Assembly (NCBI RefSeq): GCF_011043545.1
Contig: NZ_JAAKGP010000004.1
Location: 186,001-250,000 of the forward strand
From: Rhodobacter sp. SGA-6-6
GTDB lineage: Bacteria > Pseudomonadota > Alphaproteobacteria > Rhodobacterales > Rhodobacteraceae
Reading direction: 5' to 3'
DNA length: 64,000 nt
A program made the translations under genes and the position numbers. The notes below the pieces were generated by a model. That model saw nothing but the letters and a program-made list of their open reading frames with translations. It was not told the origin of the DNA and searched no databases. Each line of letters opens with the position of its first letter. Within the stretch, counting starts at the first letter, position 1. Shown piece by piece: positions 13,821-31,961 of the stretch.

Positions 13821-13842
13821 GGAGAAGTCCTGTCGGCCCGGC

Positions 13843-16675: not shown

Positions 16676-17443
16676 TCACACCATCAGATAGCCGCCGTCC
16701 ACCACCATCTCCGCCCCGGTGACGAAGCTGGATTCGTCGCTGGCGAGGTATAGCACCATATAGGCGATGTCCTCGGGCTTCCCCAGCCGGCCGATGGGAT
16801 GGCGGGACAGGGCCTTGGCCTTCTCCGCCTCCAGCCGCCCCAGCCCGGCCAGGTAATTCTCGGTCTGCGGCGTCCAGATATAGCCGGGGTGGATCGAGTT
16901 GCAGCGGATGCCGTAGCCCTGTTCGGCGCAATGCACCGCCACCGCCTTGGTCAGCGTCCGCACCGCGCCCTTCGAGGCGCAATAGGCGGCAAGGTCGGCC
17001 TCGCCGATGATGCCGTCGATGGAGGACAGGTTGACGATGGACCCGCCCTGCCCCTTCATCAGCGCCACCGCGGTCTTGCAGCCCAGGAACACCCCGTCCG
17101 CGTTCACCGCCATGCAGCGGCGCCATTGCTCCATGTCGCAGCTTTCGATGGTGCCGATGGGCGCGATGCCGGCGTTGTTGACCAGCACGTCCAGCCGCCC
17201 CTCGGTGCTGCGCACATCGGCCTCCACCCGCGCCCAGTCCTCGGGCGAGGAGGTGTCCTGCACGATCCCGCGCACCGTGGCGCCGGCGGCGCGCAGGGTC
17301 GCCACCGCCTTCTCCAGATCGGGCGGACTGATGTCGGTCAGGATCAGCGCCGCGCCCTCGCGGGCCAGAAGCGTGGCGCTGGCCAGGCCGAGGCCCATTC
17401 CAGCGCCGGTGATCAGGGCGATCTTGCCCTCTGCTCTTCCCAT
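16676..17443 (-). CDS. SDR family NAD(P)-dependent oxidoreductase
   Basis: This 255-residue classical short-chain dehydrogenase has the cofactor motif TGAGMGLG at residue 13, the NNAG motif (VNNAGIAP), the active-site Ser in NLSSIDG and YCASK for the Tyr/Lys pair. The acidic residue at the end of strand 2 (LTDIS) suggests NAD rather than NADP. AGGAGG precedes the ATG. It is the last gene of an eight-gene minus-strand operon that begins at 27910, so its substrate is probably a hydroxy or keto intermediate from the compound imported there. It faces repeat copy 2. Confidence 0.9.
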   Translation of the reverse strand: MGRAEGKIALITGAGMGLGLASATLLAREGAALILTDISPPDLEKAVATLRAAGATVRGIVQDTSSPEDWARVEADVRSTEGRLDVLVNNAGIAPIGTIESCDMEQWRRCMAVNADGVFLGCKTAVALMKGQGGSIVNLSSIDGIIGEADLAAYCASKGAVRTLTKAVAVHCAEQGYGIRCNSIHPGYIWTPQTENYLAGLGRLEAEKAKALSRHPIGRLGKPEDIAYMVLYLASDESSFVTGAEMVVDGGYLMV

Positions 17444-17465: not shown

Positions 17466-18218
17466 TCAGACCAGCGCCTCGGCGGCCAGCAGGTCGTAGA
17501 AAGGCCGGTGATGTTCCAGATGGGCGCGCATGTTCGGATGGTCCTGCGCCATCTTCTCGAAGGTCTCGCGCTGCGCCCGGATTTCCTCCTCGGTCAGCGG
17601 ACGGATGCCCTTGGAGGCGCTGACATCGCCGTGCCAGCCGCCCACCTGCTCCCAGTCCTTCGGCTTTTCCGACTGCCAGTCGAAGGCGGCTTCCGAGAAC
17701 GGCAGCCCCACCGCCTGCCAGAACCGCGCCATCGCGCCGCGGGTGTCCTGCCGCACAGACTCGGCCCGGATCACCACCGGGCTGCGCCCCGCCGCCTTCA
17801 GCGCGGAGTAATGCCTCCACTGCGCCTCCAGCCCGATCTCGTCCAGCGTCACCTCCGGGTCCAGCTTGTGGTAGGAGGCGATGGAGGCCACCGGATCGCG
17901 GATCAGGAAGGCATCGACCAGCCGTTCGGCGAAGACGGCATCGTCGAGGATGTGGGGCATGACGTAATAGCTCATGTCCTTGAAGAAGACCGGAGCCTTT
18001 TCCGACCGGGCGATCAGGTGGTCGCGGATCGCCGCGTAGCTGACCGGATGGTCGGGCCGCACGTCGAAATGCGGCATCACCCGGATGCGGCGATGGACGT
18101 AGTAGTCATACATGAACGGCTCATGCGCGCAGTCGAGGTCGCCCCGCTCGCGCATCACCCGCTCCATCGCCGTCGACATCGACCGCGGATGCGACCAGAG
18201 CGCATAAATCCTGTTCAC
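17466..18218 (-). CDS. Sulfotransferase family protein
   Basis: This 250-residue protein has a PAPS-type phosphate-binding loop near its start (LWSHPRSMSTAMERVM) and a 3'-phosphate region (FLIRDPVASIASYHKL). These are the two landmarks of the sulfotransferase fold. It starts with GTG at 18218, where GAGGAGGGG provides a strong ribosome binding site and no in-frame ATG exists nearby. It lies 13 bp after the permease gene and 22 bp before the SDR gene, so it belongs to the betaine-island operon. A sulfotransferase is unusual in a catabolic operon; the acceptor is unknown, and a non-sulfating role is possible. Confidence 0.82.
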   Translation of the reverse strand: MNRIYALWSHPRSMSTAMERVMRERGDLDCAHEPFMYDYYVHRRIRVMPHFDVRPDHPVSYAAIRDHLIARSEKAPVFFKDMSYYVMPHILDDAVFAERLVDAFLIRDPVASIASYHKLDPEVTLDEIGLEAQWRHYSALKAAGRSPVVIRAESVRQDTRGAMARFWQAVGLPFSEAAFDWQSEKPKDWEQVGGWHGDVSASKGIRPLTEEEIRAQRETFEKMAQDHPNMRAHLEHHRPFYDLLAAEALV

Positions 18219-18231: not shown

Positions 18232-20256
18232 TCAATCGGTTCTGCCCGGCGCCTCGCCCGGGGTCCGCAACAGCCGGTCGGCGACCAGCGCGATGCAGGC
18301 GATGATGCCGCCCGCGATCATCCCCGCCCCGGCATCGGCCTTGGACAGCGCGACATAGACCTGCTGGCCCAGTTCCCGCGTGCCGACCAGCGCCGCGATC
18401 ACCAGCATCGACAGCGCCGCCATGATGGTCTGGTTCAGCCCCAGCCGGACCGAGGGCCGGGCCAGCGGCAGCTTGACCTGCCACAGCATCTGCCGCGGCG
18501 TGGCGCCCATCTGCACCGCCGCCTCGACCAGATCGGCGCGGACGCTGCGCAGCCCGTGCTCGACATAGCGGATCGGCGGCACCACGGCGTAAAGCACGAT
18601 GGCGATCAGGGCGGTGAACTCGCCCACCTTAAACAGCATCAGCGCCGGGATCAGGAACACGAACTGCGGCATGGTCTGCAAGGCGTCGCTGACGGGGCGG
18701 AGGAGGGCCGAGAAGCGGTCGCTCTCGGCCGCCAGCACACCCAATGCGCCGCCGAGGGCGAAGGAGATCAGCACCGCGACGGCGCAGAGGTAGATCGACT
18801 GCATCATCGGCGCCCAGAGGCCGGAGACGCCGGCCAGCGCCAGCCCTGCCAGCGCCAGCGCGCAAAGCCCCGGGCCGCCGGCGCGCCAGCAGGCCACGCC
18901 GGCCAGCGCGAAGACCCCGGGCCAGGGAAAGCCGGGCAGGCCGGTCCAGACCAGCAGCGCCGCGAAGCCGAAGGCGATGCCGCGCATCGGCCGGCGGCGG
19001 CCGAGCCAGAGCGCCAGCGCAAGGCTGGCCAGCGCATAGGCGGCGATGATGGCCGGCGTCAGCGCGAAGCCCCAGACCATCGGGCTGGCCGAGCCGGAAA
19101 ACCCCAGCCGCATCGGCAGCATCACCCCATAGGTGATGGCATTGCGCAGCAGGCCGAAGAAGGGTGCGCTCCAGGCCACGAAGTCCAGGAGCCAGCCGTC
19201 CAGCCGCCTCAGGCTGCGCTGCCCGGCGTCGCCCGGCAGCAGGTCCTGCCCCGCCAGCGCCACGGCCAGCACCAGCGCCGCCGCCGCCCCGATCCACAGC
19301 ACCCGCCGGCCCGTCCGCCGGCCGCGGGCGGCGAAACCGCGGGTGATCCGGTCCAGCAGCACCGCGATCAGCACGATCACCAGCCCGGCGCCGAGGCTGC
19401 GCCCCAACTCGGCCGCGCGCATGGCCGACAGCACCTCCCAGCCGATGTCGTCGAAGCCGCCGATGATGGCGATGATGATCACCATCGACAAGGAGGCCAT
19501 GGTGGTCTGGTTCACCCCCACCAGCAGCTGCGGCAGGGCCGAAGGCACCCGCGCCTGCCAGAACAGCTGCGCCGGGGTCGCCCCCGCCATCAGCGCGCTT
19601 TCGACGATGGCGGGCGGCACCCCGCGCAGGCCGACCAGCGTGTTGCGCACCATCGGCGGGATCGAGAACACCACGCTGGCCGCCAGCCCCGCGGTAGGGC
19701 CGAAGCCGAACAGCAGCAAGAGCGGGATCAGGTAGCCGAAGGCGGGCCAGGTCTGCATCACGTCCAGCAGGACGACCAGCGCCGGCTGCAGCTTCGGGAA
19801 ACGGTGCGCCAGCGCGCCCAGGGCGAAGCCGATCCCCACCGCCAGCGGCACCGAGATCAGGACCAGCGCCAGCGTGTTCATCGCCTTGGGCCAGTAGCCC
19901 ATCGCCACCACCAGCCCCAGCGCGGCGGCGGCGAAGACCGCCAGCCCCCGCCCCCCGGCCTGAAGCGCCAGCGCCGCGACCAGTAGCACCGTCGCCGGCC
20001 AGGGCAGCCAGGCCAGCGCGGCGCGGATCGCCTCCAGCGGCCCCTCCACCGCGGCGGAGACCAGCCGGCCCAGCGGCCGCAGTGCCTCGACCAGCGGGGT
20101 GAGGACGGCATTCGCCCAGTCGGCCAGCGGCAGGGTCAGCCCGGCCGGAAAACCGCGCAGCACGGGGAAGACATGCGCCAGCGCCGCCAGCAGCACCGAA
20201 GCCGCCAGCAGCAGGACCCAGAGCATCTCGGCCCGTGTCAGGCGCGGCAGGGTCAT
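18232..20256 (-). CDS. Betaine-type ABC transporter, fused double permease (ProW-ProW)
   Basis: This 674-residue protein carries two ProW-like permease domains in tandem. The first has WPAFGYLIPLLLLFGFG with the EAA-like loop ALMAGATPAQLFWQARVPSA; the second has MPQFVFLIPALMLFKVG with AAVQMGATPRQMLWQVKLP. Each is preceded by its own group of membrane segments. Most ProW-type permeases are single-domain homodimers, so this fusion would supply the whole channel as one chain. The ATG at 20256 overlaps the ATPase stop by four bases. The binding-protein and ATPase genes lie directly upstream in the same operon. Confidence 0.92.
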   Translation of the reverse strand: MTLPRLTRAEMLWVLLLAASVLLAALAHVFPVLRGFPAGLTLPLADWANAVLTPLVEALRPLGRLVSAAVEGPLEAIRAALAWLPWPATVLLVAALALQAGGRGLAVFAAAALGLVVAMGYWPKAMNTLALVLISVPLAVGIGFALGALAHRFPKLQPALVVLLDVMQTWPAFGYLIPLLLLFGFGPTAGLAASVVFSIPPMVRNTLVGLRGVPPAIVESALMAGATPAQLFWQARVPSALPQLLVGVNQTTMASLSMVIIIAIIGGFDDIGWEVLSAMRAAELGRSLGAGLVIVLIAVLLDRITRGFAARGRRTGRRVLWIGAAAALVLAVALAGQDLLPGDAGQRSLRRLDGWLLDFVAWSAPFFGLLRNAITYGVMLPMRLGFSGSASPMVWGFALTPAIIAAYALASLALALWLGRRRPMRGIAFGFAALLVWTGLPGFPWPGVFALAGVACWRAGGPGLCALALAGLALAGVSGLWAPMMQSIYLCAVAVLISFALGGALGVLAAESDRFSALLRPVSDALQTMPQFVFLIPALMLFKVGEFTALIAIVLYAVVPPIRYVEHGLRSVRADLVEAAVQMGATPRQMLWQVKLPLARPSVRLGLNQTIMAALSMLVIAALVGTRELGQQVYVALSKADAGAGMIAGGIIACIALVADRLLRTPGEAPGRTD

Positions 20257-21296
20257 GTCGCCGTCCCGCCGTGACGGGCATCGCGGTGCAGCACCTCCAG
20301 CACCGCGGCAGCCTCGACCACCCTGCCGCCCTCGACCGCAAAGCGCCGCTGCCCCGCGGCCAGCGCGGGCAGCAGCACCTCGATCGGGGCGCGGGCGGAC
20401 AGCGGCGCGCCCTCCGGCGGCGCGGCGTCGGGCTGCGCCAGATCGCCCAGCCGGATCGCCCGGCCCAAGGCCACCTCGGCGGTGAAGGCCGCCACGTAGT
20501 CGTCGGCGGGGGACAGCAGGATTTCGGCCGGGGTGCCGATCTGGATGATCCGCCCGCCGCGCATCAGCGCGATGCGGTCGGCCAGCCGGCAGGCTTCCAT
20601 GATGTCATGGGTGATGAAGACGATGGTCTTCTTCAGCTGCCGTTGCAGCCGCAGGAATTCGTCCTGCATCTGCCGCCGGATCAGCGGGTCCAGCGCAGAG
20701 AACGGCTCGTCCAGGAACCACAGCTCCGGGTCCGGCGCCAGGCTGCGGGCGATGCCGACCCGCTGCTGCTGGCCGCCCGAAAGTTCCGTGGGCAAGGCAT
20801 CGGCCCGGCCGCCCAGTTCCACCAGGTCCAGCATCTCCTGCGCCCGCGCCTCGCGCGCCGCCCGGTCCATGCCGCGCAGCTTCAGCGGGAAGGCGACGTT
20901 CTCCAGCGCGGTGAGGTGCGGCATCAGGCCGAAGCTCTGGAACACCATGCCCATCTTGCGGCGGCGGATCTCGGTCAGCTCGCGCCCGCCGACGCGGCCG
21001 AGGTCCCGGCCGTCGAACTCCATCGCGCCATGTTCGATGTCCAGAAGCCGCGACAGGCAGCGGACCAGGGTGGACTTGCCCGAGCCGGACAGCCCCATGA
21101 TGACGAAGATCTCGCCCTTCTTCACGTCGAAGCTGGCATCGGCCACCGCCGGGATATGCCCCTCGCGCCGCAGCCGGGCGGCAAGGGCGTCGGGGTCGAT
21201 CCGGTAGCCTGCGGTGTCGAAATAGTATCCGGGCCGCGGCCCGAACACCTTCCACAGGTTGCGGCAACTCAGCATGATCTCGGGCGCCTGCGCCAT
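20253..21296 (-). CDS. Betaine-type ABC transporter ATPase (ProV family)
   Basis: This 347-residue ATPase shows the ProV-type N-terminal extension (NLWKVFGPRPGYYF). Walker A is GLSGSGKST, the Q-loop lies in MVFQSFGLMPH, the signature is LSGGQQQRV and Walker B leads to LDEPFSALDP. The C-terminal ~75 residues do not form clear CBS domains, so ionic-strength sensing through CBS is not supported. AGGAGG lies 7 bases before the ATG taken here; a GTG one codon upstream is the alternative. It is coupled by overlap to the fused permease gene. Confidence 0.93.
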   Translation of the reverse strand: MAQAPEIMLSCRNLWKVFGPRPGYYFDTAGYRIDPDALAARLRREGHIPAVADASFDVKKGEIFVIMGLSGSGKSTLVRCLSRLLDIEHGAMEFDGRDLGRVGGRELTEIRRRKMGMVFQSFGLMPHLTALENVAFPLKLRGMDRAAREARAQEMLDLVELGGRADALPTELSGGQQQRVGIARSLAPDPELWFLDEPFSALDPLIRRQMQDEFLRLQRQLKKTIVFITHDIMEACRLADRIALMRGGRIIQIGTPAEILLSPADDYVAAFTAEVALGRAIRLGDLAQPDAAPPEGAPLSARAPIEVLLPALAAGQRRFAVEGGRVVEAAAVLEVLHRDARHGGTAT

Positions 21297-21329
21297 CACG
21301 GGGCCTCCTGCAAGGGTGCCGGACGGGCG

Positions 21330-22262
21330 CTATTGCAGCGCCGCATCCACCCAAGGACGCCAGGCCGCCTCGTTCGCGGCGATCCAGCCGTCGGCCACTG
21401 CCTCCAGCGACTGGCCCTGCTCGATCGCCAGCATCATCTGCTGCTGGTCCTCGGTCGACAGCCGGAAGGACTTCAGCACCTCATGGGCCGCGGGCCATTT
21501 CTCGGCGAAGCCGGACCAGACCACCTTGTTCACGTCCGGCGGCATGATGCAGTGCTCGTTCGACTGGTCGACGCAGGGCGGCATCTCGATCCAGCCGACC
21601 TCGACCTCGGCCAGGATGAAATGCGGCGCCCAGAACATCATCACCAAGGGCGTCTTCGCCGCCTCCGCCGCCCGCAGTTCGGCCAGCATCGCCCCTTCGG
21701 ACCCCGAGGGCACCGCCGTCAGCGGCAGGTTGTTGTCGGCGATGATCGTCGCCGCGCGCGATCCCCAGTCCGAGGGATAGTCGAGGAACCGCCCGTTCGG
21801 CAGCGTGTCCGGCGTCGCCAGCTGCGCCACGCAGTCCGGGTCGTTCAGCGCCTCCCACGAAGGCAGCGCGGGGCACAGTTCCTCCATGAACTTCGGATAG
21901 ATCCAGCCCTCGTTGGTCTGCAGGCCCAGGGTGCCGAGGTCCTCGATCTGCCCGGCCTCCAGCGCCTTCGGATAGATGTCGCCGACGTTGTTCAGCCAGA
22001 TCTCCGGCGAGACGGCGATCTCGCCATCGGCGAGGCCCTGGAAATGCGGATAGTTGCCGGCGGTGACGTATTCGACCTTGTAGCCGGCCTTCTCCAGCAC
22101 CCGGCCCACCACCTGCGATGTGATCTGCGCCCCGGTCCATTCCAGCATGGCGATGCGGATGGTGTCGCCCGTGGCGCCGGGATCGGCGGCATGGGCCGGG
22201 CCGAAGCCCATGGCGGCCAGCGCGAAAGCCGACACGGCGGCATTGATGCTCTTCCTTGTCAT
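21330..22262 (-). CDS. Betaine-type ABC transporter substrate-binding protein (ProX/OpuAC)
   Basis: This 310-residue periplasmic protein has a signal peptide ending near GPAHA. The OpuAC fold is seen in IRIAMLEWTGAQITSQVVGR, VSPEIWLNN and VMMFWAPHFIL, the last two contributing Trp residues typical of the aromatic cage for quaternary ammonium groups. Four further Cys residues (CPALPS, DPDCVA, PPCVD, EHCIM) are visible and may form periplasmic disulfides. It lies 33 bp upstream of the ATPase gene and 52 bp after the SDR gene. The exact ligand is not evident; glycine betaine, carnitine or related compounds are all possible. Confidence 0.92.
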   Translation of the reverse strand: MTRKSINAAVSAFALAAMGFGPAHAADPGATGDTIRIAMLEWTGAQITSQVVGRVLEKAGYKVEYVTAGNYPHFQGLADGEIAVSPEIWLNNVGDIYPKALEAGQIEDLGTLGLQTNEGWIYPKFMEELCPALPSWEALNDPDCVAQLATPDTLPNGRFLDYPSDWGSRAATIIADNNLPLTAVPSGSEGAMLAELRAAEAAKTPLVMMFWAPHFILAEVEVGWIEMPPCVDQSNEHCIMPPDVNKVVWSGFAEKWPAAHEVLKSFRLSTEDQQQMMLAIEQGQSLEAVADGWIAANEAAWRPWVDAALQ

Positions 22263-22314: not shown

Positions 22315-23109
22315 CTACCAGAGCGCGCCGCCGGTGATCTTCACTTCCTCCATGGTGATGCCCTTCGCCGCGTCGCCGATCAGGAAACCGATCAGCGCGG
22401 CCACTTCCTCCGGCCGGATGATCCGCCCCTGCGGATTCTGCGCGGCGATCTCTGCCCGCGCCTCGGCCACGCTGCGGCCCTTGCCTTCCCGCGCGACGAT
22501 CTGGGCCAGGTCGGATTCCATCATCGGCGTGTCGACCCAGGTCGGGCTGACCATGACGCAGGTCACGCCATGCGCCGCGCCCTCCAGCGCCACGCAGCGG
22601 GTCAGCCCCAGCAGCCCCGCCTTCGAGGCGCAATAGGCCGGGTTGTCCTTCCAGCCCACCGTCGCGGCGGTGGAGCCGATGTTGACGATCCGGCCCCAGC
22701 CCTGCGCGATCATCGCCGGCAGGCAGGCGCGGATCATGCGGAAGGCGCCGGTCAGGTTGGTCTCGATCACCTTCTGCCACAGCGCCTCGGAATGGCCCTG
22801 CACCGGCTGCTCCGCCGTCACCCCGGCGGCGTTGACCAGCACGTCGGCCGGGCCGAAGCGTTCGGTCGCGCGGGCGCAGAAGGCGGTGACGGAGGCCGGG
22901 TCCGTCAGGTCCAGCGCATCGGCCCGCACCTCGCCGCCGCCCGCCAGTGCCGCCTCGGTCAGCGCGCCGAAAGCCTCGCGCCGCGACCGGCTTTCCAGGT
23001 CGCGGGCGCCAACCGCCACCCGGTGGCCCTTGCCGGCCAGGTCCAGCGCCACCGCATGGCCGATGCCGGACAGTCCCCCGGTCACGATCACCCGGCGCCG
23101 TTCGGTCAT
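22315..23109 (-). CDS. SDR family oxidoreductase
   Basis: This 264-residue short-chain dehydrogenase has TGGLSGIGHAV at residue 10, NAAG (VLVNAAGVTA), the active-site Ser in NIGSTAATVG and YCASKAG. An Arg-containing loop after strand 2 (GARDLESRSRR) favours NADP. It is not a close copy of the SDR at 16676. The ATG at 23109 overlaps the stop of the preceding FAD-GcvT gene by four bases. Its place between the demethylases and the importer suggests that it acts on the carbon skeleton of the same substrate, for example a beta-hydroxy group as in carnitine-like compounds, but that is inference. Confidence 0.9.
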   Translation of the reverse strand: MTERRRVIVTGGLSGIGHAVALDLAGKGHRVAVGARDLESRSRREAFGALTEAALAGGGEVRADALDLTDPASVTAFCARATERFGPADVLVNAAGVTAEQPVQGHSEALWQKVIETNLTGAFRMIRACLPAMIAQGWGRIVNIGSTAATVGWKDNPAYCASKAGLLGLTRCVALEGAAHGVTCVMVSPTWVDTPMMESDLAQIVAREGKGRSVAEARAEIAAQNPQGRIIRPEEVAALIGFLIGDAAKGITMEEVKITGGALW

Positions 23110-25520
23110 GGCACACCCCCGCGCATCCTTGCGCCCTTCGGATCGAACGGCGGTTCCGCCAGGATGCGGGCGCCGCGGCGCTTGCCCAGAACCTCGGCCT
23201 CCAGCCCCTCGCGCGCGCTGCGGTCGCGCAGGTAGGCCAGCGCCAGCACCTTGCCGGTGCGATGGCCATAGGCCGCCGAGGTGATCACGCCGACGCAGCG
23301 GTCGCCCTGCCAGAGGCCGTGCGAGTAATAGGGATCGGCCTCGCCCGGGTCGAGCTCCAGCAACACCATCTCCCACCGCGCCGGGTCCTGCATCCGCTTC
23401 AGCAGCGCCTCCCTGCCGATGAAATCGTGATCCGGCTTGACCAGGAAACCCATGCCGGTCTCCGCCGGGGTCCGTTCGGTGGTGAAGTCCGATCCCCAGG
23501 CGGGATAGCCCTTCTCCAGCCGCATCGCGTTCATCGCATAGGCGCCGAAACAGCCGATCCCCTCGGGCTTGCCCGCCGCTTCCAGCGCCAGGAACAGCTC
23601 CGCCGCGCGCGGGGCGGGGACATGCAACTCCCAGCCGAGTTCGCCAACGTAGGAGAGCCGCATCGCCCGCACCGGGATGCCGGCGACGGTCATCTGCCGG
23701 ACCGACATCCACGGCCCCAGCGGATCATCGGTCAACCGTTCGAGGATCGCCTGCGAAGCCGGCCCCATCAGCCCGATCACCGCCCAGTCCTCGGTCACCC
23801 GCTTCACCTCGACATCGAAGCCCTGCGCCCGGGCGCGCAGCAGGTCGTCGTCGCGCATCTCGGCCGCGGCGGCCGAGGTCAGGTAGAAATGGTCCTCGGC
23901 CAGGCAGGCGACGGTGAATTCCGATTCCGTCCCGCCCGCCGGCGACAGCGCATGGGTCAGCCCCACCCGCCCCGGCTGCGGCGCGCGGTTGGCGCCGAGC
24001 GCATCGACGAAGGCCCGCGCCTGCGGCCCCTTCGCCTCGAACTTCGAGAAGACCGACATGTCGGCCAGCCCTGCGGCGGTGGTCACCACATGGCATTCCC
24101 GCGCCACCGCATCGGACCAGCCGGGGCGGCGGAAGGTCAGGCCCGCGGGGTCGCCGAACCAGTTCGGCCGCTCCCAGCCATAGGCCGCGCCCATCTGCGC
24201 GCCGCGCGCCTTCATCAGGTCGTAGAGCGGGGTCAGCCGCTTGCCGCGCGCCGCGGGGCGTTCCTCATAGGGGTAGTGGACGCCGAACTGCAGGCCGAAG
24301 CATTCCACCGCCTTCTGCACCCGGTAGTCGCGGTCGGCCCAAGGGCCGAAGCGGCGGCTGTCCACGGCGAGGGCATCCATCGGCGGCGCGCCGTGGGTCA
24401 TCCAGTGGGCCAGGAACCAGCCCGAGCCGCCGCCCTCCATCACCCCCATCGATGACCCGGTCAGCAGCCAGGCGTTCGGAAGCCCCCAGGCCGGGCCGAT
24501 CAGCGGATTGGCGTCGGGGGTGAAGGTGATCGGGCCGTTGACCACCGACTTCACCCCGCCGGTCTCCAGCGCCGGGATGCGGGCCATGGCGGCCATCAGG
24601 ATATGCTCCACCCGGTCCAGATCGGGGGCCATCAGCTCCGCCCCGAACTCCGGCGGCACACCATCCACCGACCAGACCTGCGCGTCCTTCTCGTAGGGGC
24701 CGAGAATCAGCGCATCGCGCTCCTGCCGGACATACCAGCTTTCCTCGGGGTCACGGATCATCGGCAGTTCCGGCAGGCCGGCAGCGATGCGCTCGGCCAC
24801 CGCGGGCACGGTGTCGGTGACCAGATACTGGTGCAGCACCGGGACCGAGGGCACGTTGGCCCCCATCATCGCCCCGATCTCCCAGCCCCAGGTTCCCGCC
24901 GCATTGACGATGTGCTTCGCCCGGATCGGTCCCTGTTTCGTCTCGACCAGCCAGTGCCCGCCCTCGCGGCGGATCGACTGCACCGGATTCCAGCGCAGGA
25001 TCGTCGCCCCTCCGGCCCGGGCCACCTTCGCCATGGCGTTGGTCGCCAGCGTCGGATCGACATGGCCGTCGTCGGGCTCGTAGATGCCGCCGAGGATGCC
25101 CTCGGTCCGCGCCAGCGGGTGCAGCGCCGCCACCTCCTCGGGCGATTTCAGCAGACGCAATTCGTAGCCGGTGAACTTCGACAGCCCGGCGACATGGGCG
25201 AATTCGTCCATCCGGTCGGGGTTGGAGGTGATCCGCATCGCGCCGGAGCGGTGGAAGCCGCAGCTTTCCCCCGTCTCCTGCGGAAGGATGTCGCGGTAAA
25301 GCCGCACCGAGGTGGCGCGCAGCTCCTGGATCGTCGGGTTGTGGGCGAAATGGGTGCACAGCCCGGCGGCGTGCCAGGTGGAGCCATGGGTGAGGTCGTT
25401 CTTCTCGGTCAGGACCACATCGGTCCAGCCCGCCTTGACCAGATGATACATCAGCGAGACGCCCATGGCGCCGCCGCCGATGATCAGGACCTGCGCCTCG
25501 GTGGTCGCCTGCGTCGTCAT
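23106..25520 (-). CDS. FAD-dependent N-demethylase with GcvT domain (dimethylglycine/sarcosine dehydrogenase family), second paralog
   Basis: This 804-residue, two-part enzyme has an N-terminal FAD domain with GGGAMG near residue 15. HGSTWHAAG includes His50, the residue to which FAD is covalently bound in dimethylglycine and sarcosine dehydrogenases. The C-terminal half is a GcvT/aminomethyltransferase domain (LSYVGELGWELHVP, AMNAMRLEKGYPAWGSDF). There, tetrahydrofolate can trap the formaldehyde released from an N-methyl group. ATGA overlaps couple it to both neighbours. It shares architecture with the gene upstream but is clearly diverged, which suggests a different methylation state or substrate rather than redundancy. 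Confidence 0.92.
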   Translation of the reverse strand: MTTQATTEAQVLIIGGGAMGVSLMYHLVKAGWTDVVLTEKNDLTHGSTWHAAGLCTHFAHNPTIQELRATSVRLYRDILPQETGESCGFHRSGAMRITSNPDRMDEFAHVAGLSKFTGYELRLLKSPEEVAALHPLARTEGILGGIYEPDDGHVDPTLATNAMAKVARAGGATILRWNPVQSIRREGGHWLVETKQGPIRAKHIVNAAGTWGWEIGAMMGANVPSVPVLHQYLVTDTVPAVAERIAAGLPELPMIRDPEESWYVRQERDALILGPYEKDAQVWSVDGVPPEFGAELMAPDLDRVEHILMAAMARIPALETGGVKSVVNGPITFTPDANPLIGPAWGLPNAWLLTGSSMGVMEGGGSGWFLAHWMTHGAPPMDALAVDSRRFGPWADRDYRVQKAVECFGLQFGVHYPYEERPAARGKRLTPLYDLMKARGAQMGAAYGWERPNWFGDPAGLTFRRPGWSDAVARECHVVTTAAGLADMSVFSKFEAKGPQARAFVDALGANRAPQPGRVGLTHALSPAGGTESEFTVACLAEDHFYLTSAAAAEMRDDDLLRARAQGFDVEVKRVTEDWAVIGLMGPASQAILERLTDDPLGPWMSVRQMTVAGIPVRAMRLSYVGELGWELHVPAPRAAELFLALEAAGKPEGIGCFGAYAMNAMRLEKGYPAWGSDFTTERTPAETGMGFLVKPDHDFIGREALLKRMQDPARWEMVLLELDPGEADPYYSHGLWQGDRCVGVITSAAYGHRTGKVLALAYLRDRSAREGLEAEVLGKRRGARILAEPPFDPKGARMRGGVP

Positions 25521-27910
25521 GCCTTCATCCTTTCGCCCGCAGGGTCGTAGGGCGGGCGGGCCAGCGCCTGTGCCTGATGGTGTGTTCCCGCGATTTCCAC
25601 GGTGAAGACCCGCGCGCAGGTCTGCGCCATGGTCTCGCCCTTCGTTATCCCGATCAGGCCGAGCGCCAGCGTCCAGCCCGTCCGCGCACCCTTCGCGCCG
25701 GAGGTGGTCAGGCCGACCACGCGGCCGTTCTCCCATATCGGCTCGTCATGCAGCACCAAGGGGTGGCCGGGCAGGTCGAACAGCACCAGCTTGCGGGCGA
25801 TGCCCTCGCCCCGCTGCGCCTGAAGCGCCGGCTTGCCGAGGAAATCCTTCCCCCAGTCCACCGCGAAGCCGAGACCGGCCTCCAGCGGCGAGATGTCGGG
25901 GCCGAGGTCGTGGCCCATGTGGCGGAAGCCCTTCTCGATCCGGCAGGCGTCCAGCGCGTAATGGCCCATCGGCCTCGCGCCCGCCCCGGTGAGGGCGCGG
26001 AAGACGGCGGCGGCGGACGCGGCGGGGACATAAAGCTCCCACCCCAGTTCGCCGACGAAGCTGACCCGCTGCGCGGTGCAGGGCTGGCCGGCGACGGTGA
26101 CGGCGCGGGCGGTGGAGAAGGGGAAGTCCTGCCAGTCGTCGGGCGACAGCCCGGCCAGCAGCGCCCGGGAGCCTGCGCCCATGACGCCGATCACCGCCTC
26201 GGCCTCGGTCGCGTCCTCGATCCGCACATCGAAGCCCGCCGCATTGCGCCGCAGCCAGGCCCCGTCGCGCCAGCGGGTCGCGGCGCCGGAGACCAGGCGG
26301 AAGTCCTGCGCGGCGCGGCGCAGGATGGTCACATCGCCCTCGATCCCGCCGCGGTCGTTCAGCAGAACGGTATAGACCGCCCGGCCCGGGGGCACGTCCA
26401 GATCCGCCGTGGCGACATGCTGCACGAAGCGCAGCGCATCGGGGCCGGAGATGTCGAACTTGCCGAAGGGTGAGAGGTCCAGCAGCGCCGTCCCTGTCTC
26501 CATCACCGCCGCCTCGCGCTGCGCGATGGGGAACCAGGGCTGCGCGCCGACGGAATAGGGCAGGTCGCGTTCCGCGGCGTCGCGGGCATACCACAGCCCG
26601 CGCTCCCACCCCGCGGTCAGGCCGAAATGCGCGCCTTCCGCCGCCCAGAGGTCGTGCAGCACCGACTTCCGCAGCCCCCGCCCCGCCTTCGGCTGCTTGA
26701 ACGGCCAGTGCAGCGCGAAGACATCGGCCACCGCCTCTTCCATCCGCGCCTGCACATGCTCCGCCGCAGCCGCCAGCGGGTCGGCCCGGGCCACGTCCAC
26801 CTCCCACAGGTCCATCGGCGCATGGCCGGCCAGCATCCAGTCCGCCAGCACCCGCCCGACCCCGGCCGAGGACATCACCCCGGTCGAGTTCATCCCGGCG
26901 GCGACGAAAAGCCCGTCCACCGCCGGCGCCTGCCCCAGCAGCATCCGGCTGTCCACGGTGAAGCTTTCCGGCCCGTTCATGAAATGCTGGATGCCCACCC
27001 GCTCCAGCCCCGGGATCAGCGCCAGCGCCGCCTCCATGAAGGGGGTGAACTGGTCCCAGTCCTCGGGCATCTCCAGGAAGGGCCGGTCGCCCTCCGGCCC
27101 GTAGGCATCCCAGCATTTCGCCGCCGGCTCGAAGCCGCCGATCACCAGCTTGCCGGCATCGCCCTTGACATAGATGCCGCGGTCCAGGTCGCGCAGCACC
27201 GGGAAGGGATGCGGCATCTCCGGCATCGGCTCGGTCACCACATACATGTGTTCCACCGCCTGCAGCGGCAGCGCCACGCCCAGCGGATCGGCCAGCCGCT
27301 TCGACCAGGCCCCGGCGCAGAGCGCGACCTGATCGGCGGGGATCACCTCGCCGTCGGCCATCTCCACCCCCGTCACCCGGCTGCCCGCGGTGACGATCCG
27401 CGCCACCCTTGCATTCTCGCGGATCACCGCGCCTTGCGCCTTCGCCGCGCGGGCATAGGCCATGCAGAGATCGACCGGGTTGACGTTGGCATCCTCCTCC
27501 ACCGCCATCGCGCCCACGACACCGGACAGGTCCAGCCCCGGCACCGCCACGCCCTCCGGCCCGGTGATCGCGGGATGCAGCCCGAAGTGGCGGCCGAGCG
27601 CGGCGATGCGGTGCAACTCGTCCATCCGCGCCGGATCGCGCGCCAGCCAGTAGCCGCCGGTGCGGCGGTAGCCGGTGGAAAGCCCGGTCTCGGCCTCCAG
27701 CCGCGGGAACAGCTCCCCGGCATACATCGCCAGCTTCGTCGCATTCGGCGTCGCCCGCAAAGGCCCGACGATCCCCGCCGCGTGCCAGCTGGTGCCCGAG
27801 GTCAGCGTGTTCCGCTCCAGGAGCGTGACCGAGGCGGGGCCGGCCTTCGTCAGGTGATAAGCGAGGCTCAGCCCCACCGCCCCGCCGCCGATGATCACGA
27901 TCTTCCGCAT
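25517..27910 (-). CDS. FAD-dependent N-demethylase with GcvT domain (dimethylglycine/sarcosine dehydrogenase family), first paralog
   Basis: At 797 residues it has the same architecture as its downstream neighbour. The FAD-binding GGGAVG is at residues 8-13, TSWHAAG contains the putative FAD-linking His43, and a folate-binding GcvT half carries VSFVGELGWELYVP and DACRIEKGFRHMGHD. The reaction expected is oxidative removal of one N-methyl group, with the one-carbon unit passed to tetrahydrofolate. It is the first gene of the eight-gene minus-strand operon and is divergent from lysR. The start at 27910 fits the Rossmann start; the frame is open further upstream but enters the regulatory gap and lysR. 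Confidence 0.92.
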   Translation of the reverse strand: MRKIVIIGGGAVGLSLAYHLTKAGPASVTLLERNTLTSGTSWHAAGIVGPLRATPNATKLAMYAGELFPRLEAETGLSTGYRRTGGYWLARDPARMDELHRIAALGRHFGLHPAITGPEGVAVPGLDLSGVVGAMAVEEDANVNPVDLCMAYARAAKAQGAVIRENARVARIVTAGSRVTGVEMADGEVIPADQVALCAGAWSKRLADPLGVALPLQAVEHMYVVTEPMPEMPHPFPVLRDLDRGIYVKGDAGKLVIGGFEPAAKCWDAYGPEGDRPFLEMPEDWDQFTPFMEAALALIPGLERVGIQHFMNGPESFTVDSRMLLGQAPAVDGLFVAAGMNSTGVMSSAGVGRVLADWMLAGHAPMDLWEVDVARADPLAAAAEHVQARMEEAVADVFALHWPFKQPKAGRGLRKSVLHDLWAAEGAHFGLTAGWERGLWYARDAAERDLPYSVGAQPWFPIAQREAAVMETGTALLDLSPFGKFDISGPDALRFVQHVATADLDVPPGRAVYTVLLNDRGGIEGDVTILRRAAQDFRLVSGAATRWRDGAWLRRNAAGFDVRIEDATEAEAVIGVMGAGSRALLAGLSPDDWQDFPFSTARAVTVAGQPCTAQRVSFVGELGWELYVPAASAAAVFRALTGAGARPMGHYALDACRIEKGFRHMGHDLGPDISPLEAGLGFAVDWGKDFLGKPALQAQRGEGIARKLVLFDLPGHPLVLHDEPIWENGRVVGLTTSGAKGARTGWTLALGLIGITKGETMAQTCARVFTVEIAGTHHQAQALARPPYDPAGERMKA

Positions 27911-28037: not shown

Positions 28038-29024
28038 ATGAACCAGCGCCATAAAGACGAGCCGGATATCAACCTTTTCCGGGCGATAGAGGTCTTCATG
28101 GCCGTGGCCGAGATGCGGCAGGTCACCGCCGCGGCCTCGGCGCTGCGGATCACCCAGTCGGCCGCCTCGCAGCACCTGAAGAACCTGGAGACGATCTTCG
28201 GCCTGCCGCTGATCGACCGCTCCACCCGCCCCATCGCCCTGACCTATGCCGGCGAGACGCTGCAACGCCACGGCTTCCGCCTGCTGAACCTGATCGACGA
28301 CCTGAAGCGCGACATGCAACATCTGGGCGCCTCGTCGCTGCCGGCGCTGCGGGTCGGCCTCCTCGCCTCCATCGCCACCACGCTGACGCCGGGGCTTTAC
28401 GAACTGGTCTGCAAGGAGATGAAGGTGCCCGAGCTGATGCTGTCGGCCGGCCTCGCCACCGACCATTTCGCGGCGCTGAACGACCGGCGGATCGATATGG
28501 CGGTAACCTCGGAGAAATTGCAGGAAGGCCCGGGATATACCTTCATCCCGATCCTGGAGGAGCCGTTTTATCTGGTTCTTCCAGAGGGTTACACCGGACC
28601 CGCCGACGACATCCACGACATCGCCCGCCGGCTGTCGCTGGCGCGCTTCGGCACCTCCACCCCGGTGGGGCGCAGGACCGACCAGCACCTGCAACGCTGC
28701 CGGCTGGACCTGCCCCGCGCCATCGAGGCCGACCGCACCTCGATGGTGATGGCGGGGGTGATTACCGGCAAATGCTTCGCCATCCTGTCGCCGACGCTGC
28801 TGATCGACGGGGTGGCCGAGGGGATGCGGCTGCGGATCGAGCCGCTGCCCTTCGCGCCGCTGAAGCGCACACTGCATCTGGTCTGCCGCCGCGACGACCT
28901 GGGCGCCATCCCCGCGCGGATCGCAAGGGAAAGCCAGGCGATCCTGAAACGCGCCTTCGACCACCATTTCCCCGCGATCTCGCACCAGGTCAGCTACCAC
29001 GAGATCACTTATCCGTCCCATTAG
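28038..29024 (+). CDS. LysR family transcriptional regulator
   Basis: This 328-residue regulator has an N-terminal winged helix-turn-helix (VFMAVAEMRQVTAAASALRI, TQSAASQHLKNLETIFGLPL), followed by a long linker helix and a periplasmic-binding-protein-like effector domain. The ATG at 28038 is chosen because the helix-turn-helix begins shortly after it; earlier in-frame codons lie in the divergent promoter region. It sits between the two arms of the betaine island and probably controls both, responding to the imported compound or a degradation product. The effector cannot be predicted. Confidence 0.92.
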   Translation: MNQRHKDEPDINLFRAIEVFMAVAEMRQVTAAASALRITQSAASQHLKNLETIFGLPLIDRSTRPIALTYAGETLQRHGFRLLNLIDDLKRDMQHLGASSLPALRVGLLASIATTLTPGLYELVCKEMKVPELMLSAGLATDHFAALNDRRIDMAVTSEKLQEGPGYTFIPILEEPFYLVLPEGYTGPADDIHDIARRLSLARFGTSTPVGRRTDQHLQRCRLDLPRAIEADRTSMVMAGVITGKCFAILSPTLLIDGVAEGMRLRIEPLPFAPLKRTLHLVCRRDDLGAIPARIARESQAILKRAFDHHFPAISHQVSYHEITYPSH

Positions 29025-29118: not shown

Positions 29119-30639
29119 ATGCAGGAGCGACGGGGCCGCAGCGCCCGGATGCAGGAACGCAGCGCGAAGAACCGGGTCTCGGCGCCCTATGTGCTGCGTC
29201 GCATCGGCATCGTCAGCCTGATCGACGAGGAAGCCGTCGCCACCATCGAACGGAACGCCGACCGCATCCTGGACGAGATCGGCATGGATTTCCGCGGCGA
29301 CGCCGAGACGCTGGAAATCTTCCGCGCCGCCGGCGCCCGCGTCGACGGCGAGCGGGTGCGCTTCGATCCCGGCTGGTGCCGCGACAGGATCAGGACCGCG
29401 CCGAAGGTCTTCACCCAGCACGCCCGCAACTCCGCCCGCTCGGTCCAGATCGGCGGCAATGCGCAGCTCTTCTGCCCCAGCTTCGGCCCGCCCTTCGTGC
29501 ACGACATGGAGAAGGGCCGCCGCTACGCCACCATCCACGACTTCCGCGAGATCACCAAGCTGCACTACAGCCTGAACGCGGTGAACCACTCCGGCGGGGT
29601 GGTGGTCGAACCCGTGGACCTGCCGGTCCCGGTCCGCCACCTGCACATGGCGCATTCCCACCTGACGCTGTCCGACAAGCCCTTCATGGGCGCCGTCACC
29701 GCGCCCGAACGCGCCCGCGACACCATCGAGATGTGCCGGCTGGCGATGGGGCGGGATTTCGTCGACCAGAACTGCGTCCTCTATTCGGTGGTCAACACCA
29801 ATGCGCCGCTGGTGATGGACGAAACCATGCTCTGGGCGCTGAAGGAGTATGCCAAGGCCGGGCAATGCACCGTGGTCTCGCCCTTCGTCCTCGGCGGCGC
29901 GATGAGCCCCGTCACCGTGGCCGCCACGCTGGCGCAGGTGCTGGCCGAGGTGATGGCCTCCGTCGCGCTGATCCAGCTGATCCGCCCCGGAGCGCCTTCG
30001 GTCTTCGGCACCTTCTTCTCGCCGCTGTCGCTTCGCACCGGCGCCCCCACCTTCGGCACGCCGGAGGGCACCCAGTTCCAGATGTGCGCCAAGACCCTGG
30101 CCGACCGGCTGGGCCTGCCGTTCCATTCCGTCGGCGCGCTGACGGCCTCGAAGGTGCCGGACGCGCAGGCGGGCTATGAAAGCCAGGCGCAGCTGACCGG
30201 GGCGGTGATGGCGGGGGTGAACTTCATCATCCACGCCACCGGCTGCCTGGAGGGCCTTCTGACCACCGGCTACGAGAAGATCGTGATGGACGCCGACCGC
30301 TGCGCCGCGCTGGCGCGCTTCGTGCAGGGCATCGACTTCTCCGAGGCCGCGCAGGCGATGGACGCCTTCGCCGAGGTCGGCCCCGGCGGCCATTTCCTCG
30401 GCGCCACCCATACCCGCGAGAATTTCGAGAGCGCCTTCTGGCTGGGCGACATGTCCGACAACGGCACCTACGAGCAATGGACGGCGGAGGGCGGCCTCTG
30501 GCAGCACGACCGCGCCTCGGCCCGGGTCAAGCAGATCCTGCGCGACTACGAGGCCCCCGAAATGGACATCGGCATACGCGAGGCGCTGGACGATTTCGTC
30601 GCCCGCCGCACATTCGAGATCACCGGAGAGAAAGCATGA
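29119..30639 (+). CDS. Trimethylamine methyltransferase (MttB) superfamily protein, non-pyrrolysine
   Basis: This 506-residue protein is of the MttB superfamily, whose non-pyrrolysine members transfer a methyl group from quaternary amines such as glycine betaine, proline betaine, carnitine or gamma-butyrobetaine to a corrinoid protein. The frame has no in-frame amber codon. The stretch ASKVPDAQAGYES, with Lys345, falls where archaeal MttB carries pyrrolysine in my recollection of the alignment. GFGPP-like and HATGCLEGLLTTGYEK blocks also fit the family. GGAGGGGAAG precedes the ATG. No corrinoid-protein gene or methyl-corrinoid:folate methyltransferase lies in this window. The next gene starts inside its stop (ATGA). 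Confidence 0.88.
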   Translation: MQERRGRSARMQERSAKNRVSAPYVLRRIGIVSLIDEEAVATIERNADRILDEIGMDFRGDAETLEIFRAAGARVDGERVRFDPGWCRDRIRTAPKVFTQHARNSARSVQIGGNAQLFCPSFGPPFVHDMEKGRRYATIHDFREITKLHYSLNAVNHSGGVVVEPVDLPVPVRHLHMAHSHLTLSDKPFMGAVTAPERARDTIEMCRLAMGRDFVDQNCVLYSVVNTNAPLVMDETMLWALKEYAKAGQCTVVSPFVLGGAMSPVTVAATLAQVLAEVMASVALIQLIRPGAPSVFGTFFSPLSLRTGAPTFGTPEGTQFQMCAKTLADRLGLPFHSVGALTASKVPDAQAGYESQAQLTGAVMAGVNFIIHATGCLEGLLTTGYEKIVMDADRCAALARFVQGIDFSEAAQAMDAFAEVGPGGHFLGATHTRENFESAFWLGDMSDNGTYEQWTAEGGLWQHDRASARVKQILRDYEAPEMDIGIREALDDFVARRTFEITGEKA

Positions 30640-31961
30640 GCCTGGAAACCAGCTGGAACCTGGAAGAGACCGCGGCACGGCGCGACCGCTACTACTCGGC
30701 CAGCCAGCGCAAGTTCGTGCCCTTCAAGGACCCGATCGTGTTCCGCAAGGGGCAGATGCAATATCTCTGGGACGAGAAGGGCCGGAAATACACCGACCTT
30801 CTGGGGATGAACGTCTGCATCTCGGTCGGCCACTCCCACCCCGAGGTGGTGAAGGCGGCGATGGACCAGGCGCAGGAGCTGACCCATTGCACGACGATGT
30901 TCTACCACCCGGTCCCGGCCCATTTCGCCGAGGAACTGACGGCGACCATGCCGAAGGGGCCGAAGGGCGACATCGAATGGGTGGTGCATTTCACCAATTC
31001 CGGGTCCGAGGCCATCGACCTGGCCATGGCGATGGCGCGCGGCTACACCGGCAACCTGGACCTGCTGGCGCTGCGCACGGCCTATCATGGGCCGACCTCG
31101 GCGGCGCAATCGGTGACCGGCATCGCCGGCTGGCGGCACCCGGGGATGCCCGGCAACGTCGCCTTCGTGGCCGAGCCGAACCAGTATCGCGGCATCTTCG
31201 GCCGCAACGCCGGCGCGCAGCCCTATCTGGACGAGATCGAGCGGGTGATCGACTCCTCGACCACCGGGCGCATCGCCGGCATCCTGATCGAAAGCGTGCA
31301 GGGCTATGGCGGCATCATCGAGATGCCCCCCGGCTACCTGTCCGGCGCGGCCGAGCGGGTGCGGGCGGCGGGCGGGCTCTACATCGCCGACGAGGTGCAA
31401 TCGGGCTTCGGCCGCACCGGCGGGCATATGTGGGGCTTCGAATCCGACGACGTGATCCCCGACATCGTGGTGATGGCCAAGGGCATCTCCAACGGCTTCC
31501 CGCTGGGCGCGGTGGTGGCGCGGCGCCACATCGCCGAGCCGATGGCCGAGAAGTTCATGTTCCACACCTACGGGTCGAACCCCACCTCCTGCGCCGCGGG
31601 CCGGGCGGTGCTACAGGTGTTGAAGCGCGACCGGCTGCAGGAGAATGCGAAAGACGTCGGCGGCGCGCTGCTGAAGCGGCTGCAGGACCTGTATCAGAAA
31701 TACCCCGTCATCGGCGACGTGCGCGGCCGCGGGCTGATGCTGGCGATCGAGATGGTGTCGGACCGCGCCAAGATGACCCCCGATGCCGAGACCACCAGCG
31801 CCGTGTTCGAGGCCTGCCGCGAGGCCGGACTGATCCTGTCGAAATCCGGGCCGCACCGCTCCACCCTGCGGATGGTGCCGCCGCTCTGCCTTTCGATGGA
31901 GGATGTCGAGACCGTCGCCGAGGGGCTGGACCGGGCCTTCGACATGGCGCGGAAAGGATGA
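30636..31961 (+). CDS. Class III aminotransferase (alanine-glyoxylate / omega-amino acid type)
   Basis: This 441-residue PLP enzyme has HFTNSGSEAIDLAMAMAR for phosphate binding. IADEVQSGFGRTGGHMWGFE includes the Asp that contacts the pyridine nitrogen, and VVMAKGISNGFPLG holds the Schiff-base Lys. Class III enzymes of this subgroup (AGXT2-like) use alanine, beta-alanine, GABA-type omega-amines or glyoxylate. The ATGA overlap with the methyltransferase gene means that the two are made together. It is well placed to deaminate the primary amine left after demethylation of the imported compound. The precise amine is unknown. Confidence 0.9.
   Translation: MSLETSWNLEETAARRDRYYSASQRKFVPFKDPIVFRKGQMQYLWDEKGRKYTDLLGMNVCISVGHSHPEVVKAAMDQAQELTHCTTMFYHPVPAHFAEELTATMPKGPKGDIEWVVHFTNSGSEAIDLAMAMARGYTGNLDLLALRTAYHGPTSAAQSVTGIAGWRHPGMPGNVAFVAEPNQYRGIFGRNAGAQPYLDEIERVIDSSTTGRIAGILIESVQGYGGIIEMPPGYLSGAAERVRAAGGLYIADEVQSGFGRTGGHMWGFESDDVIPDIVVMAKGISNGFPLGAVVARRHIAEPMAEKFMFHTYGSNPTSCAAGRAVLQVLKRDRLQENAKDVGGALLKRLQDLYQKYPVIGDVRGRGLMLAIEMVSDRAKMTPDAETTSAVFEACREAGLILSKSGPHRSTLRMVPPLCLSMEDVETVAEGLDRAFDMARKG

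What the first reader, a model, noticed from the sequence alone, without database searches (positions are those of the whole stretch)
17466..18218. Sulfotransferase inside a betaine catabolic operon
A PAPS-loop sulfotransferase with a strong ribosome binding site and a GTG start is the seventh of eight genes in the demethylase/importer operon. Sulfotransferases are not part of known betaine degradation. It may sulfate an alcohol intermediate or store the compound as a sulfate ester; alternatively it has lost sulfation activity.
Basis: inference. Interest (0 to 1): 0.5.

Follow-up and report, generated by a model that had tools for sequence, protein, structure and literature searches.

The report
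Sulfotransferase tied to choline-type demethylation
A bacterial gene that probably adds a sulfate group to a small molecule keeps company, across many species, with enzymes that strip methyl groups and nitrogen from choline-like compounds, which suggests that sulfate is used as a handle and leaving group to break such a compound down.

Summary
In detail: 17466-18218 on the minus strand is an intact Sulfotransfer_5 gene (GTG start, AGGAGG site), seventh of eight tightly packed genes. It folds like a PAPS sulfotransferase with an invariant P-loop, so lost activity is unlikely. It belongs with a four-gene core: MttB-family methyltransferase, two dimethylglycine-dehydrogenase-like flavoproteins and a class III PLP enzyme whose nearest solved relative is ethanolamine-phosphate phospho-lyase. 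In 292 genomes of the order, 11 carry the sulfotransferase, 15 the PLP enzyme, 10 both (Fisher p 3e-14), sometimes unlinked. PAPS synthase (5 of 80 loci) or CysQ (2 of 80) lies beside or near it in relatives. Best reading: it makes choline-O-sulfate; three demethylations give ethanolamine-O-sulfate; the PLP enzyme expels sulfate and ammonia. A published Eubacterium limosum pathway does the first part with phosphate (PMC12155760). Coupling is well supported; substrate and chemistry are inferred. Against: the gene sits inside only 8 of 24 islands sampled without regard to it (a lower bound), 4 genomes have the island without it, and PLP-enzyme residues do not settle lyase versus transaminase.

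The parts
17466..18218 (-). Sulfotransferase (Sulfotransfer_5), GTG start, 250 aa; the finding
16676..17443 (-). SDRb, short-chain dehydrogenase, 22 nt downstream; a close relative (91%) beside the sulfotransferase only in L003 among the 80 loci
18232..20256 (-). Permease, double BPD_transp_1, choline/betaine type (below the curated cut-offs)
20253..21299 (-). ABC ATPase, ProV/ChoV type (below the curated cut-offs)
21330..22262 (-). Substrate-binding protein, OpuAC; closest PDB chain 4xz6, a glycine betaine/proline ABC binding protein
22315..23109 (-). SDRa, short-chain dehydrogenase; present in some Rhodobacterales islands
23106..25520 (-). DMG2: FAD oxidoreductase + GcvT, dimethylglycine-dehydrogenase-like
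25517..27910 (-). DMG1: second FAD + GcvT protein of the same kind, first gene of the operon
28038..29024 (+). Divergent LysR-type regulator (start codon not certain), often conserved with the island
29149..30639 (+). MTTB: non-pyrrolysine MttB-family methyltransferase (PF06253), one of nine in this genome (start codon not certain)
30636..31961 (+). AAT: class III PLP enzyme, nearest solved relative ethanolamine-phosphate phospho-lyase 6tor
32083..33096 (+). Second betaine/choline-type substrate-binding protein
33198..34220 (+). Second ProV-type ATPase
34217..35701 (+). Second choline/betaine-type permease

Best explanation
The gene encodes an active PAPS-dependent small-molecule sulfotransferase that serves the MttB / DMG1 / DMG2 / AAT route. 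Most likely it converts imported choline to choline-O-sulfate. The sulfate gives the quaternary amine an anionic group of the kind that known MttB-family substrates carry; MTTB removes the first methyl, DMG1 and DMG2 the next two, leaving ethanolamine-O-sulfate; AAT, a relative of ethanolamine-phosphate phospho-lyase, then eliminates sulfate and ammonia to give acetaldehyde. Sulfate thus acts first as a handle and then as a leaving group. Shown by computation: the gene, its predicted fold and conserved site, its coupling to AAT and the island, PAPS synthase and CysQ beside or near it in relatives. Inferred: that it is active, that the acceptor is choline, the order of steps, and that AAT is a lyase on a sulfate ester.
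For: Fold: model pLDDT 93.3; best structural matches are the olefin-synthase and curacin sulfotransferases (4gox Z 15.1, rmsd 3.9, 227 aligned; 4gbm Z 14.6, rmsd 3.9, 229 aligned). Invariant H10 P11 R12 S13, S15 T16, H32 E33 P34 F35, K80 D81, S115 in 53 sequences. PAPS supply: PAPS synthase beside or one gene away in 5 of 80 loci, CysQ in 2 of 80; in 2 of 8 genomes searched (G001, G708) there are two full-length PAPS synthases, one of them at the sulfotransferase; the window's genome has one on another contig. Coupling: 26 of 80 loci hold all four core genes, 39 of 80 at least one. Of the 47 loci without AAT in reach, 46 were given for a genome search, 45 genomes were held and 35 of these have AAT. 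In 292 genomes: 11 sulfotransferase, 15 AAT, 10 both, p 3e-14; all 8 sulfotransferase genera are among the 10 of 113 genera with AAT. AAT: best PDB match 6tor, 303 bits against 228 for the next; Z 47.8 at 39% identity against 46.2 at 31% for the next row; best NCBIfam models PRK06149/PRK06148, matched over their C-terminal part and so below cut-off. Choline sulfatase stands beside the sulfotransferase in L082 (601 bits, cut-off 433) and, with one regulator gene between, near a 61-62% AAT homolog in L139 (682 bits). TmpA/TmpB follow sulfotransferase and AAT in L063, and their relatives in L076. An aminoethylphosphonate cluster precedes the sulfotransferase in L046. These are all 2-aminoethyl or choline-type chemistry. 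Precedent: in E. limosum the MttB-family MthB acts on phosphocholine, not choline, after the kinase MthK, and the authors propose that the acidic group is a binding determinant (PMC12155760: abstract, sections 10-11, passages).
Against: Inside only 8 of 24 islands sampled by AAT; 4 genomes hold the island and no ortholog (G142, G166, G174, G215). Two genomes of another family (G387, G406) also have the island, with no sulfotransferase at E 1e-40 (partner genes recognised by eye from their first residues). In 10 of 45 genomes the sulfotransferase occurs without AAT, and G082 is a further case in the order sample. AAT keeps an invariant Arg412 and Glu219 where E. coli GABA transaminase has its carboxylate Arg and partner Glu (roles recalled), and lacks the N-terminal GP..FF stretch of 6tor and 5g4i, so it may be a transaminase. 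Its Z lead over GABA transaminases is 2.0 and its model is weak around the active site. PAPS costs more ATP than a kinase would. No acceptor was tested. A PAPS synthase is near-universal in the family anyway (52 of 53), while two sulfotransferase carriers, G028 and G010, show no fused one at E 1e-60, so their PAPS supply is not shown.
Confidence: 0.4

Rival explanations
1. The sulfotransferase makes choline-O-sulfate as a compatible solute or sulfur store; the demethylation island burns it, or choline, when it is not needed.
For: Two choline/betaine-type importers lie in the island. The gene stands apart from the island in many genomes and without any AAT in 10 of 45, five of them in one Roseovarius-rich clade. 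Choline-O-sulfate is accumulated as an osmoprotectant by plants, fungi, red algae and some bacteria (PMC6189696, passages).
Against: Does not explain why the gene tracks AAT so closely across genera, nor its place inside a catabolic-looking operon with a divergent LysR.
Confidence: 0.2
2. Same logic with another hydroxylated quaternary amine such as carnitine: the O-sulfate of 4-amino-3-hydroxybutyrate would be eliminated to succinic semialdehyde.
For: The phospho-lyase subfamily also handles phosphohydroxylysine (recalled); the two SDRs could act on such a compound (inference).
Against: An MttB-family enzyme, MtcB, demethylates carnitine itself (title in the reference list of PMC12478193), so no handle is needed. 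Gene neighbours in relatives point to 2-aminoethyl and choline chemistry.
Confidence: 0.12
3. AAT is an ordinary transaminase; its aldehyde is reduced by an SDR and the alcohol is sulfated, so that sulfation is the last step (overflow, detoxification or export).
For: AAT keeps transaminase-like residues; SDRa and SDRb lie in this operon.
Against: Of the 33 loci with AAT in reach, 5 show an SDRa relative of 58% or more and none an SDRb relative of that level (flanks at most 10 kb). Spending PAPS on a catabolic product is hard to justify.
Confidence: 0.12
4. Passenger gene, or a sulfotransferase fold with lost activity, carried along by linkage.
For: Physical linkage varies; inside only 8 of 24 sampled islands.
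Against: Invariant active-site residues; coupling persists when unlinked; PAPS synthase and CysQ beside or near it in relatives.
Confidence: 0.06

Closest known systems
MthK-MthB-MthC-MthA choline demethylation of Eubacterium limosum (PMC12155760)
   Same: An MttB-family methyltransferase works on choline only after the alcohol has been turned into an acidic ester; the modifying gene lies near the methyltransferase gene.
   Different: There a kinase and phosphate, an acetogen, one methyl removed, ester recycled. Here a PAPS sulfotransferase, two further flavoprotein demethylases and a PLP enzyme.
MtgBCDE glycine betaine demethylation of Ruegeria and relatives (PMC12478193)
   Same: MttB-family protein in Rhodobacterales; later demethylation steps often placed nearby in other marine bacteria.
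   Different: No corrinoid or pterin protein gene was seen among the profiled genes of the island, and a sulfotransferase and a phospho-lyase-like PLP enzyme are added.
Ethanolamine-phosphate phospho-lyase ETNPPL/AGXT2L1 (6tor) and A1RDF1 (5g4i)
   Same: 6tor is the closest solved relative of the island's class III PLP enzyme by sequence and by fold.
   Different: Substrate would be a sulfate ester; some pocket positions differ and a transaminase-like Arg is kept; 5g4i ranks only 40th by fold.
Curacin CurM and olefin-synthase sulfotransferase domains (4gbm, 4gox)
   Same: Nearest folds; in those systems sulfation primes an alcohol for elimination (recalled).
   Different: 12-18% identity; those are polyketide synthase domains acting on carrier-bound acyl chains (recalled).
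Plant choline sulfotransferase (Limonium, cited in PMC6189696)
   Same: Proposed reaction, choline + PAPS to choline-O-sulfate.
   Different: Plant enzyme activity; no sequence compared here.

Membership tests
PAPS-dependent sulfotransferases, Pfam Sulfotransfer_5 | Profile match above the curated cut-off | tested here: met
   57.2 bits against 23.2
PAPS-dependent sulfotransferases, Pfam Sulfotransfer_5 | 5'-phosphosulfate loop and 3'-phosphate Arg/Ser motifs (roles recalled) | tested here: met
   HPRSxST and S115 invariant, R107 nearly invariant in 53 sequences
PAPS-dependent sulfotransferases, Pfam Sulfotransfer_5 | Sulfotransferase fold | tested here: met
   4gox Z 15.1, rmsd 3.9, 227 aligned; the first 20 Foldseek rows are sulfotransferases
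PAPS-dependent sulfotransferases, Pfam Sulfotransfer_5 | Transfer of sulfate from PAPS | not testable with these tools
   needs an assay
Choline sulfotransferase | Choline as acceptor | not testable with these tools
   neighbourhood evidence only
Ethanolamine-phosphate phospho-lyase (for AAT) | Nearest solved relative by sequence and fold | tested here: met
   303 against 228 bits; Z 47.8, rmsd 2.4, 384 aligned, 39% identity
Ethanolamine-phosphate phospho-lyase (for AAT) | Phosphate-pocket residues in place of transaminase carboxylate residues | tested here: inconclusive
   Arg412 and Glu219 invariant, N-terminal GP..FF stretch not shared; residue roles recalled
MttB superfamily (for MTTB) | PF06253, full length, without an in-frame stop | tested here: met
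   673 bits over profile positions 2-499 of 500; open frame
MthK-MthB choline pathway | Choline kinase gene beside the methyltransferase | tested here: not met
   no kinase among the 14 profiled genes of the island; an APH-family kinase lies near some relatives (L056)
MtgBCD glycine betaine demethylase | Corrinoid and pterin partner genes in the same island | tested here: not met
   none among the 14 profiled genes; elsewhere in the genome not searched. Ruegeria itself has them apart (PMC12478193), so glycine betaine as substrate is not excluded

The most novel reading that the evidence does not exclude
A sulfation-primed catabolic pathway: a Sulfotransfer_5 enzyme turns choline into choline-O-sulfate so that an MttB-family enzyme and two flavoprotein demethylases can strip all three methyl groups, and a PLP 'sulfo-lyase' then uses the same sulfate as leaving group, returning it as inorganic sulfate. 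It would be the first bacterial choline sulfotransferase gene and the first catabolic use of PAPS that I know of. Pairing of Sulfotransfer_5 with PLP enzymes may be general: a paralog in this genome starts a few bases after a class IV aminotransferase gene.
Probability: 0.33. Interest if true: 0.82.

Novelty: new variant of a known kind. Interest (0 to 1): 0.62.

Why it matters
MttB-family proteins form a very large superfamily (nine copies in this genome), yet the 2025 E. [quoted passage not shown] A sulfotransferase in that role would be a second solution and would link choline turnover, sulfate activation and one-carbon metabolism in Rhodobacterales. It would also give a function to Sulfotransfer_5: a full-text search for its name and accession found 2 papers; the passages I saw only list it.

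Tried and rejected
Rejected or weakened: (1) Presence of PAPS synthase as a marker: 52 of 55 genomes searched have it, 52 of 53 in the family, so only its placement at the gene, or an extra copy, counts. (2) Sulfotransferase as a fixed operon member: inside 8 of 24 islands. Three of these 24 (L135, L138, L142) show only part of the partner genes, some on cut contigs, so 8 is a lower bound. (3) A kinase replacing it in genomes without it: the genes around AAT in L084, L085, L086 and L088, looked at by their first residues only, showed none that I recognised; no profile search was run on them. (4) AAT as a clean phospho-lyase by residues: inconclusive. (5) Promoter scan: nothing found. (6) No PDB sequence match for the sulfotransferase up to E 1. 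(7) Phylum-wide sample too thin: 4 of 398 AAT, 2 of 398 sulfotransferase. (8) Literature: ten searches listed no paper that I recognised as dealing with this sulfotransferase, a bacterial choline sulfotransferase gene or sulfation before MttB demethylation. Only open-licence PMC papers are held, listings are capped, and of most papers I saw only title and start of abstract. Read further: PMC12155760 (abstract, sections 10 and 11, passages), PMC12478193 (sections 5 and 7, passages), and passages of PMC8154272, PMC12442346, PMC6189696, PMC11625862, PMC12506393.

Errors and limits of mine: the AAT query and in the PDB search was in a wrong frame; AAT labels are void, and the AAT results used come from cluster c4 or from then on, with 30636 as start. 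In the tree, L026 was labelled as having AAT without a test. L026 was also the one locus without AAT in reach that I did not give; L064's genome was not held. Identity thresholds were set by me (AAT 55%, MTTB 45%, DMG1 45%, DMG2 50%, PAPS synthase 70%, CysQ 50%). Among the 35 AAT genomes, G036 is a partial match of 230 residues and G015 has one stop inside; completeness of the ten negatives is not known. That G741, G813 and G948 carry the sulfotransferase elsewhere is inferred from identical AAT coordinates in G031, G037 and G014, the genomes of L059, L070 and L030.

Full report
What is there. The frame at 17466-18218 on the minus strand encodes a 250-residue Sulfotransfer_5 protein (57.2 bits, cut-off 23.2), with a GTG start and a strong Shine-Dalgarno sequence. 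The start is supported by homologs whose frames begin at the same residue, such as L003 and L006. It is seventh of eight genes read in one direction from 27910 to 16676: two FAD/GcvT proteins (DMG1, DMG2), SDRa, an OpuAC-type binding protein, ATPase, double permease, the sulfotransferase, SDRb. Gaps around it are 13 and 22 nt, and three other junctions overlap by 4 nt. A divergent arm carries a LysR regulator, an MttB-family methyltransferase, a class III PLP enzyme (AAT; its start overlaps the MttB stop by 4 nt) and a second transporter of the same type.

Is it a working sulfotransferase? In 53 aligned sequences H10, P11, R12, S13, S15 and T16 of the loop, H32-E33-P34-F35, K80-D81-M82 and S115 are invariant (the roles of these motifs are recalled from the superfamily). 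The model has mean pLDDT 93.3. The first 20 Foldseek rows are sulfotransferases, and the structural aligner puts the olefin-synthase and curacin sulfotransferase domains first (Z 15.1, rmsd 3.9, 227 aligned; Z 14.6, rmsd 3.9, 229 aligned). In 5 of 80 loci a fused ATP sulfurylase/APS kinase lies at the gene: directly upstream in L003, L004 and L006, directly downstream in L038, one gene away in L023. In 2 of 80 (L020, L023) a CysQ-type 3'(2'),5'-bisphosphate nucleotidase, which clears PAP, lies next to it (profiles checked for L003 and L023). The family at large carries a PAPS synthase (52 of 53 genomes), but in 2 of 8 genomes searched (G001, G708) there are two full-length copies, one of them at the sulfotransferase. 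Two others of the eight, G028 and G010, show no fused synthase at E 1e-60, so their PAPS supply is open. The window's own genome has its synthase on another contig. Loss of activity is therefore unlikely, though activity itself is not shown.

What it belongs with. The scan of genome contigs gave 104 relatives, of which the best 80 were kept as loci. Within up to 10 kb on each side, 33 of 80 carry AAT, 29 MTTB, 36 DMG1, 35 DMG2, 39 at least one and 26 all four. These include Geminicoccaceae, Hyphomicrobiales and Gammaproteobacteria, with different transporters and gene orders. Of the 47 loci without AAT in reach, I gave 46 to a genome search: 45 genomes were held and 35 have AAT, at 57-92% identity. 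To avoid choosing by the sulfotransferase I drew 292 genomes of the order: 11 have the sulfotransferase at E 1e-40, 15 have AAT at E 1e-140, 10 have both. Fisher's p is 3e-14; without the window's genome 5e-13; by genus, all 8 sulfotransferase genera are among the 10 of 113 with AAT, p 9e-11. The two genes can be far apart, for instance 3 Mb apart on one contig in G119 and on different contigs in G175 and G296. A phylum-wide sample was too thin (4 and 2 of 398). These tests do not fully remove shared ancestry.

Results against. Starting from AAT instead, 24 genomes (13 from the order sample, 11 more from a family sample of 394) have AAT with at least part of a DMG partner beside it. Several stretches are cut by contig ends, so 8 is a lower bound. 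Two genomes of another family also have the island, with no sulfotransferase match at E 1e-40 (partners recognised by eye). In 10 of 45 genomes the sulfotransferase occurs without AAT; five of these fall in one clade of mostly Roseovarius. G082 is a further such case. So the sulfotransferase is a separable feeder or partner.

What the PLP enzyme is. AAT's best solved match by sequence is human ethanolamine-phosphate phospho-lyase (6tor, 303 bits; next 228; the bacterial phospho-lyase 5g4i 223), and by structure too (Z 47.8, 39% identity, rmsd 2.4, 384 aligned; next row 46.2 at 31%; 5g4i only rank 40, Z 43.6), though the model is weak around the active site. Its best curated models are the C-terminal parts of PRK06149/PRK06148, long proteins that I recall as kinase fusions. 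Yet Arg412 and Glu219 are invariant, as in GABA transaminase, and an N-terminal stretch shared by the two phospho-lyases is missing. Class III enzymes include lyases annotated as transaminases: PbfA was shown to be one (PMC8154272, passages). GABA transaminase is known to eliminate sulfate from ethanolamine-O-sulfate (recalled). Lyase is therefore plausible, not shown.

The mechanism I commit to. In Eubacterium limosum the MttB-family MthB acts on phosphocholine but not choline; the kinase MthK acts first, and the authors argue that an acidic group is a binding determinant (PMC12155760, abstract and sections 10-11). That paper's main text does not mention sulfate. Here I propose the same with sulfate: choline to choline-O-sulfate, three demethylations to ethanolamine-O-sulfate, then elimination of sulfate and ammonia by AAT. 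Three demethylases for three methyl groups, a phospho-lyase relative for a 2-aminoethyl ester, and the neighbours in relatives fit: choline sulfatase beside the sulfotransferase in L082 (601 bits) and, across one regulator gene, near an AAT homolog in L139 (682 bits); the trimethylaminoethylphosphonate enzymes TmpA and TmpB after sulfotransferase and AAT in L063, with relatives of both in L076; an aminoethylphosphonate cluster before it in L046. Genomes with the island but no sulfotransferase could live on ready-made choline-O-sulfate. The weak points are the cost, as PAPS is dearer than ATP alone, and that a sulfatase beside the gene could as well undo its work.

Known versus new. The first part is a variant of MthK-MthB, the demethylation core is related to MtgB-type glycine betaine demethylation in Ruegeria (PMC12478193, sections 5 and 7), and the last step to ethanolamine-phosphate phospho-lyase. 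None of the papers listed by my ten searches was one that I recognised as describing a bacterial choline sulfotransferase gene or sulfation before MttB demethylation; in the passages seen, two papers only list Sulfotransfer_5. I rate the coupling of the sulfotransferase to this island at about 0.85 and the full chemistry at about 0.4.

Noticed in passing
L126 8745-9641 and 9648-10358 (own genome, contig C67): A second Sulfotransfer_5 gene (260 bits) starts a few bases after a class IV aminotransferase gene; the pair recurs in L106 and L108, while L107 has the sulfotransferase without a match to the aminotransferase. Sulfotransfer_5 may pair with PLP enzymes generally.
   Followed up: partly
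own genome, contigs C1, C6, C15, C33, C44, C55, C65: Nine MttB-family (PF06253) genes; the window's copy is at most 51% identical to the seven others compared. Two of these lie near DMG-like genes and one near a distant class III aminotransferase.
   Followed up: partly
L139 6101-10943: Choline sulfatase, a MocR/PdxR-type regulator and an AAT homolog of 61-62% in a row, without close MttB or DMG1/DMG2 relatives in the stretch.
   Followed up: partly
L046 3-10744: Aminoethylphosphonate degradation genes (PhnA, a cut-off phosphonoacetaldehyde dehydrogenase, PhnS2, TIGR03364 oxidoreductase) followed by an SDR and the sulfotransferase; L058 shows the same gene clusters without the SDR.
   Followed up: partly
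window 7276-15459 (-): D-aminopeptidase (700 bits, cut-off 443) and a proline-iminopeptidase-family hydrolase, next to what looks by eye like a dipeptide-type ABC transporter.
   Followed up: no
L050 10923-12602: A second type of sulfatase (best curated model PehA, below cut-off) directly after the sulfotransferase.
   Followed up: no
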